Positions 2,003-56,621 of a stretch of DNA of 64,000 nucleotides are shown one piece after another. Source of the stretch: a virus; the IMG/VR virus record IMGVR_UViG_3300032516_000004, positions 62,001-126,000 of that record, one strand, 5' to 3'. The notes below the pieces were generated by a model. The model was not told where the DNA came from. It did no database searches and saw nothing but the letters and a program-made list of their open reading frames with translations. Within the stretch, counting starts at the first letter, position 1. Each line of letters starts with the position of its first letter. A program made the translations under genes and the position numbers.

Positions 2003-2173
2003 CTTGATGGTTTAGTGCCACCGCTAGACTATTTAGTTTCACCCCCACTTGGTGGGGCGGCTGCTTCGGCAGTATATAAACTGTTCCCAGCCCGCAATTT
2101 CGCGAGCTGTAGAACAAGGTGGGATAACACCCGTACCCTTGGCATAGGGTACAAACGATCGAGGGGCTGCTCG
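2003..2173 (+). ncRNA. Omega-RNA-like (HEARO-like) structured RNA
   Basis: GC-rich, strongly self-complementary segment directly before an IscB-type PLMP coding region. Helices seen by eye: P1 2035-2039/2078-2082 enclosing P2 2043-2048/2052-2057 and P3 2061-2064/2069-2072 closed by a UUCG tetraloop; P4 2083-2086/2112-2115 with an inner 2093-2095/2102-2104; P5 2118-2121/2128-2131; P6 2133-2138/2147-2152; P7 2160-2163/2170-2173. The six-base P7 loop GGGCTG (2164-2169) is perfectly complementary to CAGCCC at 2088-2093, giving a pseudoknot. IscB genes are preceded by omega RNAs of similar size with pseudoknots that end at the start codon; here the RNA ends 3 bases before ATG 2177. Family assignment rests on position and fold, not on an alignment. 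Confidence 0.7.
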
Positions 2174-2176
2174 TGT

Positions 2177-3109
2177 ATGGGCCGGTCTCAGGAAATTATC
2201 GTCCTCGATTCGGAGCGACGATTTCTCGAGTATACGCGACCTGGGACTGCGAGATTGTTGCTAAAAGAAGGCAAAGCACGTGTTTTCTCTAGGCAACCAT
2301 TCGCAATAATGCTCTTACGCACGGTGTCAGCTGCCGAGATTAGAAGGAGAATAGTCATGCCAGCACCCCGTAATTTTACTGAGTATTTCCGTAACGAGAA
2401 GGATGTGTACGTTCAGAATCTTGCGAACGCACAGGTATCCTGTGAATTCCCTATTGGGCCTAATAGGGTCGAGGGATTCACGTTCCCACACAATCGGGAC
2501 CCCATCAATCTGACTCAACATATTCCATTTCATGCTATTAAAGATTCCATGGACTTTCGTAAAATGTTGAGCCGTAGACCCCCAGCCCTTCAACTTTTGA
2601 ATGAAGAAGAATATAATGCTTATTTTGAGAAAAGAGCATCACAACAGGGATTAAAAGATAGATCTGGGAAATTAGATATTGATGCGGCTATTGACTCGAG
2701 TGAGGAAAAGCGTCGTCGAACCGCAGATAAAAATCTTCGTGAGAATGTAACTGATAAAGACCCAGAACCCATACATGAAGTTATTGAAAGCGGTACCGGT
2801 CCCAAGGGTGCTACTCATTTTGGGGAACGTAACCGCGTAATGCCAAAAGAAGTTGTAGCAGAAGACGATATTATTAACCCTCGAGTTCTTCATCTTTGCA
2901 ATCAGGTAAAGAATGAGATTCCTGAAGAAGAAAGAATGCCTGCCAAAGACCTGCTTGATGAACTCCAGGGACTTCCAGATTTGAAACTTGATGATCTTGA
3001 GCATATTCGTGCTCATGGATTTTACAAAAGCGTGAAAAAATGGAGTAAACAGAAAATGTCTGAAATATCAGACAGTGAAGAAGCTGAAAACACTTCAGCT
3101 GACGAGTAA
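2177..3109 (+). CDS. IscB PLMP (RRXRR) domain fused to phage protein, long form
   Basis: A 310-residue reading. Residues 7-49 match the N-terminal PLMP/RRXRR domain of IscB: IIVLD, then ARLLLKEGKARV (25-36), then a PFAI segment (41-44) before the domain end; the PLMP tetrapeptide itself is replaced. In IscB this domain contacts the omega RNA. The RuvC, bridge-helix and HNH parts of IscB are absent: after residue 60 the chain continues in frame into a hydrophilic phage protein. ATG 2177 was chosen because the frame upstream to 2000 merely reads through the structured RNA. GAGGGG inside hairpin P7 could act as ribosome binding site, so folding may control translation. Whether the fusion is made, or only the short form from 2357, is unknown. 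Confidence 0.65.
   Translation: MGRSQEIIVLDSERRFLEYTRPGTARLLLKEGKARVFSRQPFAIMLLRTVSAAEIRRRIVMPAPRNFTEYFRNEKDVYVQNLANAQVSCEFPIGPNRVEGFTFPHNRDPINLTQHIPFHAIKDSMDFRKMLSRRPPALQLLNEEEYNAYFEKRASQQGLKDRSGKLDIDAAIDSSEEKRRRTADKNLRENVTDKDPEPIHEVIESGTGPKGATHFGERNRVMPKEVVAEDDIINPRVLHLCNQVKNEIPEEERMPAKDLLDELQGLPDLKLDDLEHIRAHGFYKSVKKWSKQKMSEISDSEEAENTSADE
2342..2356 (+). promoter_or_regulatory. Strong internal ribosome binding site
   Basis: AAGGAGA at 2344-2350 lies 6 bases before ATG 2357, the best Shine-Dalgarno match in this part of the window. It is read in frame as part of an Ile-Arg-Arg-Arg stretch linking the PLMP domain to the phage protein, so the same bases serve as linker codons and as an internal translation start. 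Confidence 0.7.
2357..3109 (+). CDS. Phage protein of unknown function, short form of the PLMP fusion
   Basis: A 250-residue protein beginning MPAPRNFTEYF with an excellent ribosome binding site. The N-terminal 110 residues look folded (VYVQNLANAQVSC, then FPHNRDPINLTQHIPFHAIKDSMDF), while the rest is rich in Lys, Glu and Asp and probably extended or helical (EEKRRR, EEERMP, SDSEEAE). I do not recognise the family; its position ahead of small envelope and virion genes suggests a structural or head-associated protein but nothing proves it. It shares its frame and stop with the PLMP fusion form, so two nested products are possible. Confidence 0.7.
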   Translation: MPAPRNFTEYFRNEKDVYVQNLANAQVSCEFPIGPNRVEGFTFPHNRDPINLTQHIPFHAIKDSMDFRKMLSRRPPALQLLNEEEYNAYFEKRASQQGLKDRSGKLDIDAAIDSSEEKRRRTADKNLRENVTDKDPEPIHEVIESGTGPKGATHFGERNRVMPKEVVAEDDIINPRVLHLCNQVKNEIPEEERMPAKDLLDELQGLPDLKLDDLEHIRAHGFYKSVKKWSKQKMSEISDSEEAENTSADE

Positions 3110-10269: not shown

Positions 10270-11142
10270 ATGTTATTGGAAGATACCATCGTTATTGGAA
10301 AGACCTGTAGTAAATGTGGGATTTATAAACCATATTCGGAATTTCATAAAAATACTAGAACCAAAGATGGATGTGTAATTTATTGTAAAGAATGCAATAA
10401 AGAACATAGTAGAACATGGTACCACGCAAACCCAGAAAAACGTAATAACCGGGCTACACGGCTTGCTGGTAAATATGAAGGTATAACGAATAAAATTTGT
10501 GCCAAATGTAATAAGTTAAAGCCATTTTCAGAATTCTATAAATCATCTAATAATGCTAGTGGACATAAGCCAACATGTAAGGCGTGTGTTTGTGTGGAAG
10601 AAACTAAAAGAGCTAGCAATCGCACGTTGTCCATTACACATAAAATCTGTAGTACCTGCGGTATTGATAAACCGGTAACTGATTTTGTGAAGGACAAATA
10701 TAAGAGTGATGGATATCATCAAGAATGTAGAGCATGTAAAGCGATTTACAAAAAAGAGTACTATAAAAAGAATAGAGAATGGCTAATTAAACAAGGCGCA
10801 CAAAGATTACACACCAGCATTCAGTCACGATTATCACATTTATTGCGCACTAGAATTACCGGCCTTGTTAGAAGCGGTACAAAAGCAGGATCTGCGGTTC
10901 GTGATCTGGGTTGCTCAATTATTTTCTTGAAAGAATACCTTGAGCAAAAATTTTATAATCATCCAACGACTAATGAGCCAATGACTTGGAAGAACCGTGG
11001 GCAGTATGGTTGGCATGTTGATCATATTAAGCCATTGGTTCAATTTGATCTTACTAATCGTGAACAGTTTTTACAGGCTTGCCACTACACCAACTTGCAA
11101 CCTTTATGGTGCATGGATAATTTACGTAAAGGAGCGCTCTAA
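10270..11142 (+). CDS. HNH homing endonuclease with three zinc ribbons
   Basis: A 290-residue protein. Three repeats of the pattern CxxCG-x-x-K-P-x-x-(E/D)-F ... CxxC lie at Cys 13/16/39/42, 77/80/103/106 and 127/130/153/156; these modules are typical DNA-binding parts of phage HNH endonucleases. The C terminus has the HNH core WHVDHIKPL with a downstream NLQPLW and DN. Such freestanding enzymes cut alleles lacking the gene and spread it. The gene sits between two virion genes, and its last codons supply the Shine-Dalgarno AAAGGAG used by the tail sheath gene, whose ATG overlaps its stop. Confidence 0.9.
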   Translation: MLLEDTIVIGKTCSKCGIYKPYSEFHKNTRTKDGCVIYCKECNKEHSRTWYHANPEKRNNRATRLAGKYEGITNKICAKCNKLKPFSEFYKSSNNASGHKPTCKACVCVEETKRASNRTLSITHKICSTCGIDKPVTDFVKDKYKSDGYHQECRACKAIYKKEYYKKNREWLIKQGAQRLHTSIQSRLSHLLRTRITGLVRSGTKAGSAVRDLGCSIIFLKEYLEQKFYNHPTTNEPMTWKNRGQYGWHVDHIKPLVQFDLTNREQFLQACHYTNLQPLWCMDNLRKGAL

Positions 11143-13670: not shown

Positions 13671-14162
13671 ATGGCAGACCCTTCACCGCCAGGAACATTA
13701 GTTCGCACGTCTCATTCCCTAACGATTAGAGTTAAAGGTGTTACCATTGGTCTTATCAATGGTTGGAACCCAACTCAAAGTAGAACCATTACCCCAATCT
13801 ATCAAATTGCGACATATGATCGACAGACCAGAAGCGGTGAGCCAGTAGAGAAGGTACCTGGCAACGTTACAGGTCAAACGATCGGCGTTCAGAGATATGA
13901 TATTTACACACAACGAATGGAAACAGCGTTTGGAACTACAGACCTGTCAATGTTGTCCATACAGATCGATCCATTCGATGTTGTAGAAAAGTGGATGTTC
14001 CCACAGACTGAACGTAGACCACAAGGTGGTACTGAATACGTAACATACACGGGTTGCTGGTTCTCAAATATTGGCAGAAATTTTCGATCTGATGGTGATC
14101 GAATTGTCAATGTTAATGCCACCCTCGAGTATGTACGTCGTTCGTTGGGACAAGTCTCGTAA
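13671..14162 (+). CDS. Tail tube protein, first paralogue
   Basis: A 163-residue protein following the sheath gene, with AGGAG before ATG 13671. It shares with the next two genes the framework LTI..G..IG.I.GW.P..(S/A)RT near residues 17-40, a central VPGNVTG (or VPQIQGT), a C-terminal GCWFSN(I/L)G and a final DR(I/V)VN.NATLEY. These features and the position after the sheath fit T4 gp19-like tube proteins, which stack as hexamers to form the tail's inner channel. The three copies probably differ in role. Confidence 0.85.
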   Translation: MADPSPPGTLVRTSHSLTIRVKGVTIGLINGWNPTQSRTITPIYQIATYDRQTRSGEPVEKVPGNVTGQTIGVQRYDIYTQRMETAFGTTDLSMLSIQIDPFDVVEKWMFPQTERRPQGGTEYVTYTGCWFSNIGRNFRSDGDRIVNVNATLEYVRRSLGQVS

Positions 14163-14181
14163 TAACCCGTAGAGGTTATCT

Positions 14182-14676
14182 ATGAGTTACGTTCCTGGCA
14201 CGCAAGTACGCACTAGTCACGCGCTTACCATTAAAGTTAGTGGCGTAACGGTTGGCCTTATTAATGGCTGGAATCCAACACAAGCCAGAACTGTAACACC
14301 AGTTTATGAAGTTGGTGAAGATGACTCTGGAAATCCTGTAGAAAGTGTACCAGGAAACGTCACTGGTCTTACAATTGCTGTTGGTAGATTTGATACATAT
14401 AAAAAGAGAATGGAAGAAGCATTCGGAACACCTGATTTAGTAATGCTAACCCGCCAAAACCAACCGTTTGATGTTATGGAGATCTGGGCATCTAGAAACT
14501 TTCAGGTTGATGAACGATTTATCTATCAGAAATGCTGGTTTAGTAACCTTGGTAGAACGCTACGATCAGATGACAATAGAGTCGTAAATGTAAATGCAAC
14601 GTTAGTATACACCAAAAAATTAAAGGTAAGTGGCGTTATTGGGGACGTACTATCATTTAGTAGTTTTATACAATGA
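14182..14676 (+). CDS. Tail tube protein, second paralogue
   Basis: A 164-residue paralogue of the preceding protein and its closest relative, sharing VRTSH.LTI, GLINGWNPTQ.RT, VPGNVTG and CWFSN(I/L)GR. It differs mainly in the loop after residue 48 and in the segment around residues 105-115. It lies 19 bp downstream of the first copy, with AGAGGT before the ATG, and overlaps the third copy by 4 bp. It may be an alternative tube subunit or a tube initiator or terminator. Confidence 0.82.
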   Translation: MSYVPGTQVRTSHALTIKVSGVTVGLINGWNPTQARTVTPVYEVGEDDSGNPVESVPGNVTGLTIAVGRFDTYKKRMEEAFGTPDLVMLTRQNQPFDVMEIWASRNFQVDERFIYQKCWFSNLGRTLRSDDNRVVNVNATLVYTKKLKVSGVIGDVLSFSSFIQ

Positions 14677-15206
14677 GTTTTCAATCATTCATACAGGGTG
14701 CAAGTGATTGGTTAAATGCCCAAGATACCGGTGGATTTGTAAAGGGGCCACCGATGACACAGACCGCACTATCCCATGCTATAACCATTAAATCACAACG
14801 CGGTCTTAGAATAGGTAGAATACAAGCTTGGTCACCAAATATGTCTAGAACTGTTGATACTGTGTTTGAAGTACAGGCGGCCAACACTGGTGAACCTCTT
14901 GAAAGAGTGCCACAAATACAAGGAACTAATAGTATATCGATAGATAGGTATGAATTGTATACCGCACATATGGGTGAGGCATTTAATGTTACTATACAAA
15001 ATGGATCGGATATGTTTTCACTAGTACAACAGATCAATCCAATCTACGTAAGAGAAGTATGGCGAGACCCATTTGGTGGCATGATAGCATATGTTTATGT
15101 TGGGTGCTGGTTTTCCTCTTTAGGTCACACTATAAGTGCAACAGATGATAGAATAGTCAAAGCTCGAGCAACATTAGAATTTACACGTAGGCTTAGATTA
15201 GCGTAG
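14673..15206 (+). CDS. Tail tube-like protein, third paralogue
   Basis: A 177-residue, more diverged copy with an N-terminal extension of about 28 residues before the shared core (HAITIKSQRGLRIGRIQAWSP). It keeps the MSRTV, the VPQIQGT equivalent of VPGNVTG, GCWFSSLG and DDRIVKARATLEF motifs. The ATGA overlap with the second copy suggests coupled translation. Divergence and extension fit a specialised ring at one tail end (tube initiator or baseplate-proximal tube protein) rather than the main tube. Confidence 0.78.
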   Translation: MSFQSFIQGASDWLNAQDTGGFVKGPPMTQTALSHAITIKSQRGLRIGRIQAWSPNMSRTVDTVFEVQAANTGEPLERVPQIQGTNSISIDRYELYTAHMGEAFNVTIQNGSDMFSLVQQINPIYVREVWRDPFGGMIAYVYVGCWFSSLGHTISATDDRIVKARATLEFTRRLRLA

Positions 15207-53834: not shown

Positions 53835-55097
53835 ATGAGTGCAGTTATTAATCCGTACAAGCGTCTTGCTGCAGCCGGGGCGGCAAAGCCTACCAGCGAG
53901 CAACGTAAAATGGTTGCAAGTTCTGCCACGCCGAAGGCTGTTGAGCAACATAGGACAAAGGCGGCAGAAAACACTCATCTGGCTTCTCGTGAAGATGAGA
54001 AGGTATGGGATGAGAGTGGAACATTTAACCCCACCGCGTATGCCGGTGAGACGACCCGCGATGGTATTCGTCAAGCGGTTGGCAACACCAAGCTGTCAGA
54101 GCGTATGTTCGACAAGCGTGGTGAAGTTAACGCGTATGATGACAAGGACGCCCTGCAACAGATTGCCTACTTGCTCCAAAGTGTAACCAAGAAGGCATCT
54201 CCTGGCACCTTCTATCGTGAAGCGTCTACTGATATGCCAGCTGAGGAGCGCCGCAAGGTTCTCGCAGCCGCCATGCAGGATCCCTCGGGTGAGGGTTTCG
54301 CGATTGTTGGTCAGGAGTTGTTGCTCCCGATCAAGGACATCATCGATTACGAAGGTTGGGCTCGGAAGATCTATCGGGTTCGGCCACTCGCTCAGGGTGA
54401 GTTGTTCCGTATCGCGAAGGATGTTCGTGCAACGGCTTGGGTTGTGGGACAAGATGGTCAGTCGATTGAGAGCCGTTTGTTCGGTCGTTTCATTCAGCCG
54501 TCAGAGTTCAAAGTTACGGCATTCCCGACCGTCGACATCGAAGACATCTATCAGATGAACTATGATGTTTTGGATCGCGCTCAGGATACCGCTCGTCAAG
54601 AGATCGAGTTGGAAGAGGACAAGCGAGGCTTGGCTCTTCTAGATCGAGCTGCTTTGACCGTGAATTCGGTTACGATTTTCGCGACTCTTGGAATTTCGGC
54701 GTTTGAAGACGTTCGATACCAGGTTGAGCGGCATCGTCTGATGGTTGAGAAGTTCTTGATCAACCGTGCCGAGCTTTCTGATATCGTGAAGACCATGAGT
54801 ACTCAGGTGGATCCGGTGACCGAGCGCGAGTTGATCCTCGCCGGTTATATTGGTAACATCTTGAATGCTCAGATCATCACGGCCGCTGGTACTGGAGTTG
54901 AGGAAGTGGTACCGAGAGGGACATTCTACGCAGCCACCGGTAGTGAGTATCTTGGCGAGATGGGTGTAAGGGTGGAACTGTTTTCTGAGCCCTTCAACAT
55001 GTTTTCGCACCGTCGATTAACGAAGGGTTGGGCGTTTGGCGAGATCGTTGGGTTCGGTATTCCGAACCCACGTAGTGTCAGCAAGGGACACAAATAA
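53835..55097 (+). CDS. Major capsid protein
   Basis: A 420-residue protein with AGGAGG before the ATG. Residues about 145-170 (GFAIVGQELLLPIKDIIDYEGWARKIYRVRP) and the later FGRFIQPSEFKVTAFPT and YQMNYDVLDRAQDTARQEIELEEDKRGLALLDRA segments correspond to the HK97-fold A and P domains. An N-terminal region of about 100 residues (with IRQAVGNTK at 74-82) is probably removed or used for scaffolding. It is the main shell subunit and a highly expressed gene, consistent with its GC-rich codon use. Confidence 0.85.
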   Translation: MSAVINPYKRLAAAGAAKPTSEQRKMVASSATPKAVEQHRTKAAENTHLASREDEKVWDESGTFNPTAYAGETTRDGIRQAVGNTKLSERMFDKRGEVNAYDDKDALQQIAYLLQSVTKKASPGTFYREASTDMPAEERRKVLAAAMQDPSGEGFAIVGQELLLPIKDIIDYEGWARKIYRVRPLAQGELFRIAKDVRATAWVVGQDGQSIESRLFGRFIQPSEFKVTAFPTVDIEDIYQMNYDVLDRAQDTARQEIELEEDKRGLALLDRAALTVNSVTIFATLGISAFEDVRYQVERHRLMVEKFLINRAELSDIVKTMSTQVDPVTERELILAGYIGNILNAQIITAAGTGVEEVVPRGTFYAATGSEYLGEMGVRVELFSEPFNMFSHRRLTKGWAFGEIVGFGIPNPRSVSKGHK

Positions 55098-55126
55098 CGC
55101 AACGCGTTATGATTAAGTGATGATTT

Positions 55127-55147
55127 GTGGGGCGCTCGTCGCCCCAC
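55127..55147 (+). terminator. Hairpin terminator after capsid gene
   Basis: GTGGGGCG (55127-55134) pairs with CGCCCCAC (55140-55147) around a 5-base loop, extended by T-A at the ends. It follows the capsid stop by 30 bp. The downstream bases are AT-rich without a clean T-run; termination is likely but could be partial. Confidence 0.6.
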
Positions 55148-55199
55148 ATTCATATTAAATCTTACATAATTGGTATATTTTATGCAACTATAGAATAAT

Positions 55200-56621
55200 G
55201 TGGCTCAGCGCATTGATATATCTGAAGATGCTTTAATACAAGATTGTGAAAACGGTCTTTTACAATCTGAAATGGCCCGAAAGTATAATGTGAGCAAAAC
55301 CACTATTAGTCAAAAGATTAAATTATATGGTATAAAATATACACCACGTTCTCAAAATCCAAGATATAGTGCTTTAATGTCTCAAGCATCTAATAAAATG
55401 TGGGACAATCAGGAATTACGACAACAGACTGGCAATCGAGCTAAGCAGCGCTGGGCCACAGAGCAATATCGTGAGAAGATTCAAGAAACTTACCAGAAGA
55501 CAGATTACGCGAAGCGTCAGGGTGAAATATCAAAGTTGGCGTGGCAGGATGATAAATATAGAAATCACTTAGTGTTATTATTTACATCTAATGAATTTAG
55601 AAATAAACAGCGTCAAAAATCTAATGATTGGTGGAATGATCCAAATAGAAGGCAGCAAGCTAGTAAAAGGACAAAACAAAATTGGACTAATGAAGAATTT
55701 CAACATAAGGTAGCAGTTGGTCAGAGTAAAGTTCCAAGAACAATGACCACCCCACATAGGCAGGTATGTAATTTACTTGATGCTATGGGCATAGAATATC
55801 AAACAGAGGTTCCAATAGCTAAGTATAGATTTGATATTTTGATACCTTCTCATAAGCTTTTTATTGAAACACAAGGTGATTATTGGCATGGTGAAAAGAA
55901 AAATGTAATCTGGCGAGATAGGGCTAAAGGATCATACATAGCCAACAATTTTCCGCAGTATAGGTATAAAGAATTATGGGAACATGAATGTGAGACCGAA
56001 GATTATGTTAGACATAAGCTAGAATATTGGCTTGGTGCTAAAATAAATCTTAAAGATTACAATTTTGACGATATACAAATTAAAACTGTAGATCGTGATG
56101 TGGCTAGTAAGTTTATTCGTGATTGGCACTATTTACATAAAGGCAGATTTGGTCTAGATATAGGTGGCTTTATAAGTGATCAGCTGGTTGTGTTGACTCG
56201 TTTTACGTCTGTTACTCGTCTCGAAATGGCTACAACAATAGGCTACCATCATAAAGAGGTATTGGAATTATCTAGATTATGTATCCATCCAGCATATCAG
56301 AAGAAGAATCTGGGTTCTTGGTTTTTGTCACGAGTTGAGGGTGTCATTAGACATTTAAGACCAGACATTAAGTGTTTGGTATCGTTTGCTGATATGACAT
56401 ATGGACATACGGGGGCAGTTTATAAGGCATCAAATTGGCAGTTAATATCAGAAACTAAACCAGATTATTGGTATGTGAAAGAGGATGGTTGGGTAATGCA
56501 TAAGAAAACATTATGGAATAAGGCTAAGGATGTTGGATTAACTGAAAACGATTTTGCTGCTAGATTTGGATATGTTAAAGTGTGGGGTAAAGAAAAATTT
56601 AAGTTTATTAAGAAACTGTAG
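55200..56621 (+). CDS. Vsr-like homing endonuclease with Mom-like acyltransferase domain
   Basis: A 473-residue protein with a GTG start. Residues 1-45 contain a helix-turn-helix (QSEMARKYNVSKTTISQKIKLYG). Residues about 55-175 carry four to five short W-containing modules (MWDNQELRQQ, AWQDDKYRN, WWNDPNRRQ, NWTNEEFQ), DNA-recognition repeats like those of phage homing nucleases. Residues 190-280 form a Vsr/PD-(D/E)XK-like nuclease (YRFDILIP, FIETQGDYWHG). Residues 295-450 resemble a GNAT fold of the Mom type (HKGRFGLDIGGFI ... LELSRLCIHPAYQKKNLGSWFL). It is a mobile element between capsid and early genes. Confidence 0.75.
   Translation: MAQRIDISEDALIQDCENGLLQSEMARKYNVSKTTISQKIKLYGIKYTPRSQNPRYSALMSQASNKMWDNQELRQQTGNRAKQRWATEQYREKIQETYQKTDYAKRQGEISKLAWQDDKYRNHLVLLFTSNEFRNKQRQKSNDWWNDPNRRQQASKRTKQNWTNEEFQHKVAVGQSKVPRTMTTPHRQVCNLLDAMGIEYQTEVPIAKYRFDILIPSHKLFIETQGDYWHGEKKNVIWRDRAKGSYIANNFPQYRYKELWEHECETEDYVRHKLEYWLGAKINLKDYNFDDIQIKTVDRDVASKFIRDWHYLHKGRFGLDIGGFISDQLVVLTRFTSVTRLEMATTIGYHHKEVLELSRLCIHPAYQKKNLGSWFLSRVEGVIRHLRPDIKCLVSFADMTYGHTGAVYKASNWQLISETKPDYWYVKEDGWVMHKKTLWNKAKDVGLTENDFAARFGYVKVWGKEKFKFIKKL

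What the first reader, a model, noticed from the sequence alone, without database searches (positions are those of the whole stretch)
2003..2356. Nuclease-free IscB remnant: omega-RNA-like fold plus PLMP domain in a phage
Seen: a 170-nt segment with seven helices and a six-base pseudoknot (2088-2093 with 2164-2169) ends 3 bases before an ORF whose first 49 residues match the IscB N-terminal PLMP/RRXRR domain (LLKEGKARV core). Known: IscB uses this domain to bind its omega RNA, which lies directly upstream of iscB. Here RuvC, bridge helix and HNH are gone and no IS200/IS605 transposase is nearby. Inference: an RNA and its cognate RNA-binding domain were kept by the phage for a purpose other than cleavage, such as translational control, RNA-directed DNA binding, or carrying RNA into a particle.
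Basis: partly seen in the sequence, partly recalled or inferred. Interest (0 to 1): 0.92.

Follow-up and report, generated by a model that had tools for sequence, protein, structure and literature searches.

The report
Phage gene borrowing IscB's RNA-binding domain
A group of large phages carries a gene next to the capsid genes that begins with the small RNA-binding domain of the transposon nuclease IscB and is preceded by a conserved, folded RNA that is not IscB's guide RNA; most likely the pair controls how much of the protein is made.

Summary
Window 2003-2176 is a conserved structured RNA: in 8 related phages 29 of 40 base pairs show compensatory changes, with 0/500 shuffles as good. The ORF starting at 2177 carries an IscB N-terminal PLMP/RRXRR domain (Pfam E=2e-9; Foldseek top hits are IscB structures).

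The interpretation needs changing. (1) It is not a remnant. The PLMP domain is fused in frame to a 250-aa phage protein, 'X', in all relatives found, under purifying selection. (2) The RNA is not detectably an omega/HEARO RNA. Rfam HEARO finds 11 of 11 comparison IscB loci but none of the 9 phage records searched, and reciprocal covariance models do not cross-match. (4) X has its own internal start (ATG 2357) with a selected Shine-Dalgarno, so two products are likely. PLMP-less X homologues exist in PaBG-type jumbo phages.

Best explanation (0.45): an exapted PLMP domain that binds its own mRNA leader and controls translation. In IsrB this domain contacts the RNA hairpin holding the Shine-Dalgarno. 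RNA binding itself is not shown. Not an IscB/OMEGA system; an undescribed fusion with a new leader-RNA family.

The parts
2003..2036 (+). P1, a 12-14 bp hairpin with a conserved loop that contains invariant CCACC (2018-2022)
   Evidence: 13 of 14 pairs have compensatory changes in 8 phages, 98% of cells paired
2037..2057 (+). single-stranded UUUCACC (UUUACC in the others) followed by hairpin P2
   Evidence: consensus fold; P2 2 of 5 pairs with double changes, 85% cells paired
2060..2072 (+). hairpin P3
   Evidence: sequence inspection and single-sequence folds; not in the consensus fold
2082..2116 (+). P4 long hairpin (outer 2082-2086/2112-2116, inner 2088-2095/2102-2109)
   Evidence: 6 of 8 tested pairs with compensatory changes
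2118..2132 (+). GGUGGG...CCC element (P5); GGUGG could pair with the P1 loop CCACC as a pseudoknot
   Evidence: invariant in all 8, so no covariation test is possible
2133..2152 (+). P6 terminal hairpin
   Evidence: 6 of 7 pairs with compensatory changes
2161..2166 (+). Shine-Dalgarno-like GAGGGG of the PLMP ORF
   Evidence: sequence; purine run GAGG in 7 of 8 leaders, AAGGGA in L003
2169..2182 (+). P7 short hairpin with the AUG start codon at the loop/3' arm
   Evidence: 2 of 3 pairs with compensatory changes; broken in L009 (and inspection)
2177..3109 (+). long ORF, PLMP-X fusion, 310 aa
   Evidence: in frame in all 10 aligned members plus L059
2195..2338 (+). PLMP/RRXRR domain of the IscB/IsrB type (residues 7-54); the PLMP motif itself is replaced by FLEY
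   Evidence: PF14239 E=2.2e-9; NF040563 IscB domain hit 1.6e-8; Foldseek IscB 5e-5; A8
2342..2350 (+). internal Shine-Dalgarno AGAAGGAGA, inside the PLMP-linker coding sequence
   Evidence: AGA/AGG arginine codons 22/25 here versus 66/236 elsewhere in the gene, Fisher p=5e-9
2357..3109 (+). X protein (short form, 250 aa) from the internal ATG; distant homologue of PaBG gp154 / Yoloswag gp221 (phrog_17686)
   Evidence: ATG conserved 9/9; hhalign E=4.5e-6 over 180 columns; PHROG match in 7 of 10 members

Best explanation
A lineage of large tailed phages fused the PLMP domain of an IscB-like protein to the N-terminus of a phage protein (X) that is usually encoded just after the major capsid gene. 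It is preceded by a dedicated ~175-nt structured leader RNA that ends at the Shine-Dalgarno and start codon. Most likely the PLMP domain of the long product binds the 3' part of its own leader (terminal hairpin P6 and the SD/start region) and controls translation from the first start, an autogenous feedback. X alone is made from the separate internal SD-ATG. Shown: the conserved RNA fold, the PLMP match, the in-frame fusion, purifying selection, the selected internal SD, PLMP-less X homologues. Inferred: that PLMP binds this RNA, that binding affects translation, and that both forms are made.
For: RNA: covariation 29/40 pairs, 0/500 shuffles. The leader is single-copy per genome and stays directly upstream of PLMP-X even where the capsid gene lies ~52 kb away (window) or another gene intervenes (L008, L010). 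All true leader matches in the viral collection precede a PLMP-X ORF. PLMP: profile and fold matches; pN 0.04-0.43 versus pS 0.40-1.03. Mechanism precedent: in the IsrB structure the PLMP domain binds the tandem 3' hairpins, the terminal one contains the Shine-Dalgarno, and the authors suggest expression control (PMC9581776); in OgeuIscB the terminal hairpins are recognised by PLMP (PMC9640706). Internal SD selection. L014 and L059, whose leaders do not match the main-group model, share a conserved block just before the start that can form a short hairpin next to an SD-like GAGG (inspection).
Against: The leader is not detectably an omega RNA, so binding by PLMP cannot be assumed. The RNA-contacting PLMP motif has become FLEY. 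L013 keeps PLMP but has no strong leader structure (z about -1). Predicted accessibility of the first SD varies among phages.
Confidence: 0.45

Rival explanations
1. The leader acts without PLMP (for example as a processing, stability or ribosome-spacing element, or a ligand or temperature sensor of a late operon), and the PLMP domain does something else, such as binding ribosome or other RNA like the structurally similar IF3 N-domain.
For: L013, L014 and L059 keep PLMP with different leaders. PLMP resembles the IF3 N-domain (PMC9581776; weak Foldseek hits).
Against: In the main group leader and PLMP are never found apart and stayed together in the rearranged window genome.
Confidence: 0.28
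2. The PLMP-X/leader RNA pair is a structural or assembly RNP: the leader, as an RNA, is held by the PLMP-X long form in or near the capsid (assembly or packaging role).
For: Position next to the major capsid gene in most relatives; an X-type domain is fused to repeats of Ig-like appearance in Yoloswag gp220.
Against: PLMP-less X homologues lie by primase/RuvC genes and PaBG gp154 is not among its 14 identified virion bands (PMC7412058). No evidence that the leader accumulates as a separate RNA.
Confidence: 0.13
3. RNA-guided DNA binding by a minimal OMEGA system.
For: The PLMP domain comes from an RNA-guided nuclease family.
Against: No RuvC, bridge helix, WED or TAM-interacting domain; not an omega RNA; the 5' flank is unconserved and abuts the upstream gene; no convincing target in the own genome (one 14/16 match).
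Confidence: 0.03
4. A decaying IscB remnant without function.
For: Only the first ~50 residues of IscB are present.
Against: Purifying selection on the PLMP part, conserved in all relatives found down to ~30% protein identity; covarying RNA.
Confidence: 0.02

Closest known systems
IscB / HEARO (omega RNA) OMEGA systems
   Same: N-terminal PLMP domain of the same family; a structured RNA directly upstream of the ORF, ending near SD/start
   Different: No RuvC, bridge helix, HNH, WED or TI; leader not a HEARO RNA; no guide; PLMP motif lost; fused to a phage protein
IsrB (PLMP-RuvC nickase) and IshB (PLMP-HNH, from own knowledge)
   Same: PLMP used in reduced architectures; in IsrB, PLMP contacts the SD-bearing hairpin
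   Different: No nuclease domain at all here; partner is an unrelated phage protein
TldR (nuclease-dead TnpB in phages; PMC13418256)
   Same: Phage exaptation of a transposon RNA-guided nuclease for gene control
   Different: TldR keeps the whole RNA-guided fold and its guide RNA (own knowledge); here only the PLMP domain and no guide
Autogenous translational repressors such as ribosomal-protein leaders (own knowledge)
   Same: Protein likely binds a structured leader of its own mRNA at the initiation site
   Different: RNA and protein families are unrelated; control not demonstrated
phrog_17686 proteins (PaBG gp154, Yoloswag gp221)
   Same: Homologous to the X domain
   Different: No PLMP domain and different genomic place

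Membership tests
IscB (OMEGA) | N-terminal PLMP/RRXRR domain | tested here: met
   PF14239 E=2.2e-9; Foldseek IscB hits
IscB (OMEGA) | RuvC, bridge helix and HNH domains | tested here: not met
   Only residues 7-54 match; the NF040563 score 34 is far under its cut-off of 175; the rest is domain X
IscB (OMEGA) | PLxP/PLMP motif | tested here: not met
   FLEY in the main phage group and L013, FVGY in L014, AVGY in L059
HEARO / omega RNA (RF02033) | match to the covariance model | tested here: not met
   No match at E<=10 in 9 phage records or the window leader; 11 of 11 comparison IscB loci match, though IscB locus L015 missed the gathering threshold
HEARO / omega RNA | match to an IscB omega-RNA model built here | tested here: not met
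   R2 finds held-out IscB loci L015, L041, L047, L048 but no phage leader; R1 finds no IscB locus
HEARO / omega RNA | 5' guide segment with a target | tested here: inconclusive
   5' flanks unconserved; one 2-mismatch match in own genome; host targets not testable
IS200/IS605 element | Y1 transposase nearby | tested here: not met
   None in the 178-kb record
Autogenous translational operator | protein binds its own leader and lowers translation | not testable with these tools
   Needs EMSA and reporters
phrog_17686 (X domain) | profile match along the protein | tested here: met
   7 of 10 members match; hhalign 4.5e-6

The most novel reading that the evidence does not exclude
The phages have converted the RNA-reading domain of an RNA-guided nuclease into the regulator of a phage gene located beside the capsid genes, with a newly evolved structured leader RNA replacing the omega RNA and a dual-start gene that makes PLMP-tagged and untagged versions of the same protein.
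Probability: 0.4. Interest if true: 0.85.

Novelty: new variant of a known kind. Interest (0 to 1): 0.72.

Why it matters
It shows an OMEGA RNA-binding domain living without any nuclease, fused to an unrelated phage protein and paired with a structured RNA outside Rfam. This would separate the RNA-binding job of the PLMP domain from cleavage, and it gives a direct test of the suggestion, made from the IsrB structure, that PLMP contacts at the Shine-Dalgarno control expression.

Tried and rejected
Rfam scan of the region and HEARO searches of phage records: no match. An alternative anti-SD pairing (for example UCCUC/GAGGA) exists in several but not all leaders and competes with P4; not claimed. 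CCACC/GGUGG loop pairing: invariant, so untestable. Guide-target search in own genome: one 14/16 match, not convincing. Leader pattern scan of the viral collection: the other hits are unrelated by inspection. No relative in cellular genomes. Genes after the capsid gene in PaBG-type phages are not X. Pseudomonas phage ZY21 hit lies antisense inside a tail gene.

Full report
OBSERVATION. The window is part of a 177,941-bp virus record. At 2003-2176 there is a stable RNA fold (-68.6 kcal/mol, z -3.8). The ORF with ATG at 2177 has an RRXRR (PLMP) domain at residues 7-54 (PF14239, E=2.2e-9 for the first 60 residues) and matches the first 48 positions of the NCBI IscB model. It is the only RRXRR domain in the record, and there is no Y1 transposase. 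AlphaFold2 gives a beta-beta-alpha-beta-beta domain at pLDDT about 74-87 for residues 11-50, and Foldseek's best PDB hits are IscB structures. The rest of the model is mostly of lower confidence.

RELATIVES. Protein searches found relatives L001, L002, L003, L004/L007, L008, L009, L010 and L013 in IMG/VR, Virus Rctr197k, from a methane-oxidising enrichment, at 29% identity (L014), and L059, a relative of Rctr197k. In all of them the PLMP domain is fused in frame to the same protein, here called X. None was found in cellular genomes, so these look like lytic phages. The upstream gene is the HK97-fold major capsid protein in most. In L008 and L010 one gene lies between, and in the window genome the capsid gene is at 53844-55097, far away. 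The RNA stays attached to PLMP-X in these cases, so it belongs to that gene and is not a capsid-gene terminator.

THE RNA. Eight leaders align over their length. RNAalifold predicts 40 pairs, 29 with double changes that keep pairing. Against 500 shuffles none reached the observed pairing (94.6%), double-change counts or covariation score; slid controls fall to 37-50% paired. Eight sequences is a small set, and MAFFT misaligns P3, P7 and the SD region, so support is strongest for P1, P4 and P6. The P1 loop always contains CCACC and a downstream GGUGGG is invariant. These could pair, but invariance cannot test this. The covariance model R1 finds one leader per genome in the main group and nothing in L013, L014 or any IscB locus.

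NOT AN OMEGA RNA. Rfam HEARO matched all 11 comparison IscB loci, which were picked from the tblastn hits to the phage PLMP domain (E 1e-9 to 1e-36), one of them (L041) below its gathering score; another IscB locus, L015, also missed the gathering score. The same model gave nothing at E<=10 in 9 phage records. A model built here from IscB omega RNAs found held-out IscB loci but no phage leader. Absence of a match does not exclude a very diverged common origin. One weak lead: a UUACC motif followed by a hairpin occurs near the 3' end of omega RNAs (A9) and before P2 here (UUUACC).

THE PROTEIN. In the PLMP part nonsynonymous differences (pN 0.04-0.43) are well below synonymous ones (pS 0.40-1.03), as in the X part. 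The PLMP motif is FLEY in the main group and L013, FVGY in L014 and AVGY in L059; in IscB this motif touches RuvC and the RNA (PMC9640706). At residue 61 every member of the main group and L013 has an ATG. In the last 8 codons before it, 22 of 25 arginine codons are AGA/AGG, against 66 of 236 elsewhere in the gene (Fisher p=5e-9), making an AGGAGA-like Shine-Dalgarno. This test counts sequences that share ancestry, so the p-value is optimistic. L014 and L059 also have an in-frame ATG after a purine-rich stretch. Two products, PLMP-X and X, are therefore likely.

WHAT X IS. X matches phrog_17686. Strong members of that family are Yoloswag gp221 and PaBG gp154, and profile comparison aligns X with them over 180 columns (E=4.5e-6). 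They have no PLMP domain, and none was found in those genomes. There they sit near RuvC, primase and a CRISPR/Cas-associated gene, and PaBG gp154 is not among the 14 identified virion bands (PMC7412058). So X's function is open; its position beside capsid genes is only suggestive.

MECHANISM. In IsrB the PLMP domain binds the tandem hairpins at the 3' end of its RNA; the terminal one holds the Shine-Dalgarno, and the authors suggest a role in expression control (PMC9581776). In OgeuIscB the terminal hairpins are recognised by PLMP. Here a PLMP protein is encoded directly after an RNA whose 3' end is a conserved hairpin, an SD and a start codon in a short hairpin. Feedback control of translation is the simplest reading (0.45). 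L014 and L059, whose leaders do not match the main-group model, share a conserved block just before the start. Against it: L013 keeps PLMP with no clear leader structure, and RNA binding is untested.

NOVELTY. The open-access papers searched describe no PLMP-only fusion or this RNA, as far as titles, abstracts and the passages read show; most subscription papers and bioRxiv preprints are not in that library. It is not an IscB, IsrB or HEARO member. It is filed as a new variant of a known kind: exaptation of an OMEGA component by a phage, with a new leader-RNA family.

Noticed in passing
L035:2767-4278 (Microcoleus phage My-WqHQDG, WOL31453.1): An intact-length IscB (425 aa) with HEARO RNA (129 bits) annotated only as hypothetical protein in a phage record.
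   Followed up: partly
L047:1528-1926 (MT835856.1, faecal phage contig): Unannotated HEARO RNA (139 bits) directly before an RRXRR-like coding stretch.
   Followed up: no
window 53844-55700: The major capsid gene lies ~52 kb from PLMP-X and is followed by a hairpin terminator and a gene with a helix-turn-helix-like start; in L013 foreign genes also lie between capsid gene and PLMP-X, suggesting insertions at this site.
   Followed up: partly
window 10270-11142: Endonuclease VII/HNH-like gene with repeated CxxC motifs inserted among structural genes.
   Followed up: no
L004:4660-4697: The UUUACC plus P2 unit of the leader is tandemly duplicated in this phage.
   Followed up: no
L007:6956-7760 and L010:6367-7178: The ~133-aa gene after PLMP-X is tandemly duplicated in two phages.
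   Followed up: no
window 13671-15206: Three adjacent paralogous genes of 160-180 aa.
   Followed up: no
L071:1668-3398 (Yoloswag gp220): An X-type domain (phrog_17686) is fused to a series of repeats that look Ig-like, next to the stand-alone homologue gp221.
   Followed up: no
Omega RNAs (A9) and phage leaders (window 2037-2057): Both carry a UUACC-type motif followed directly by a hairpin; possibly a shared PLMP-recognised element, not tested.
   Followed up: no
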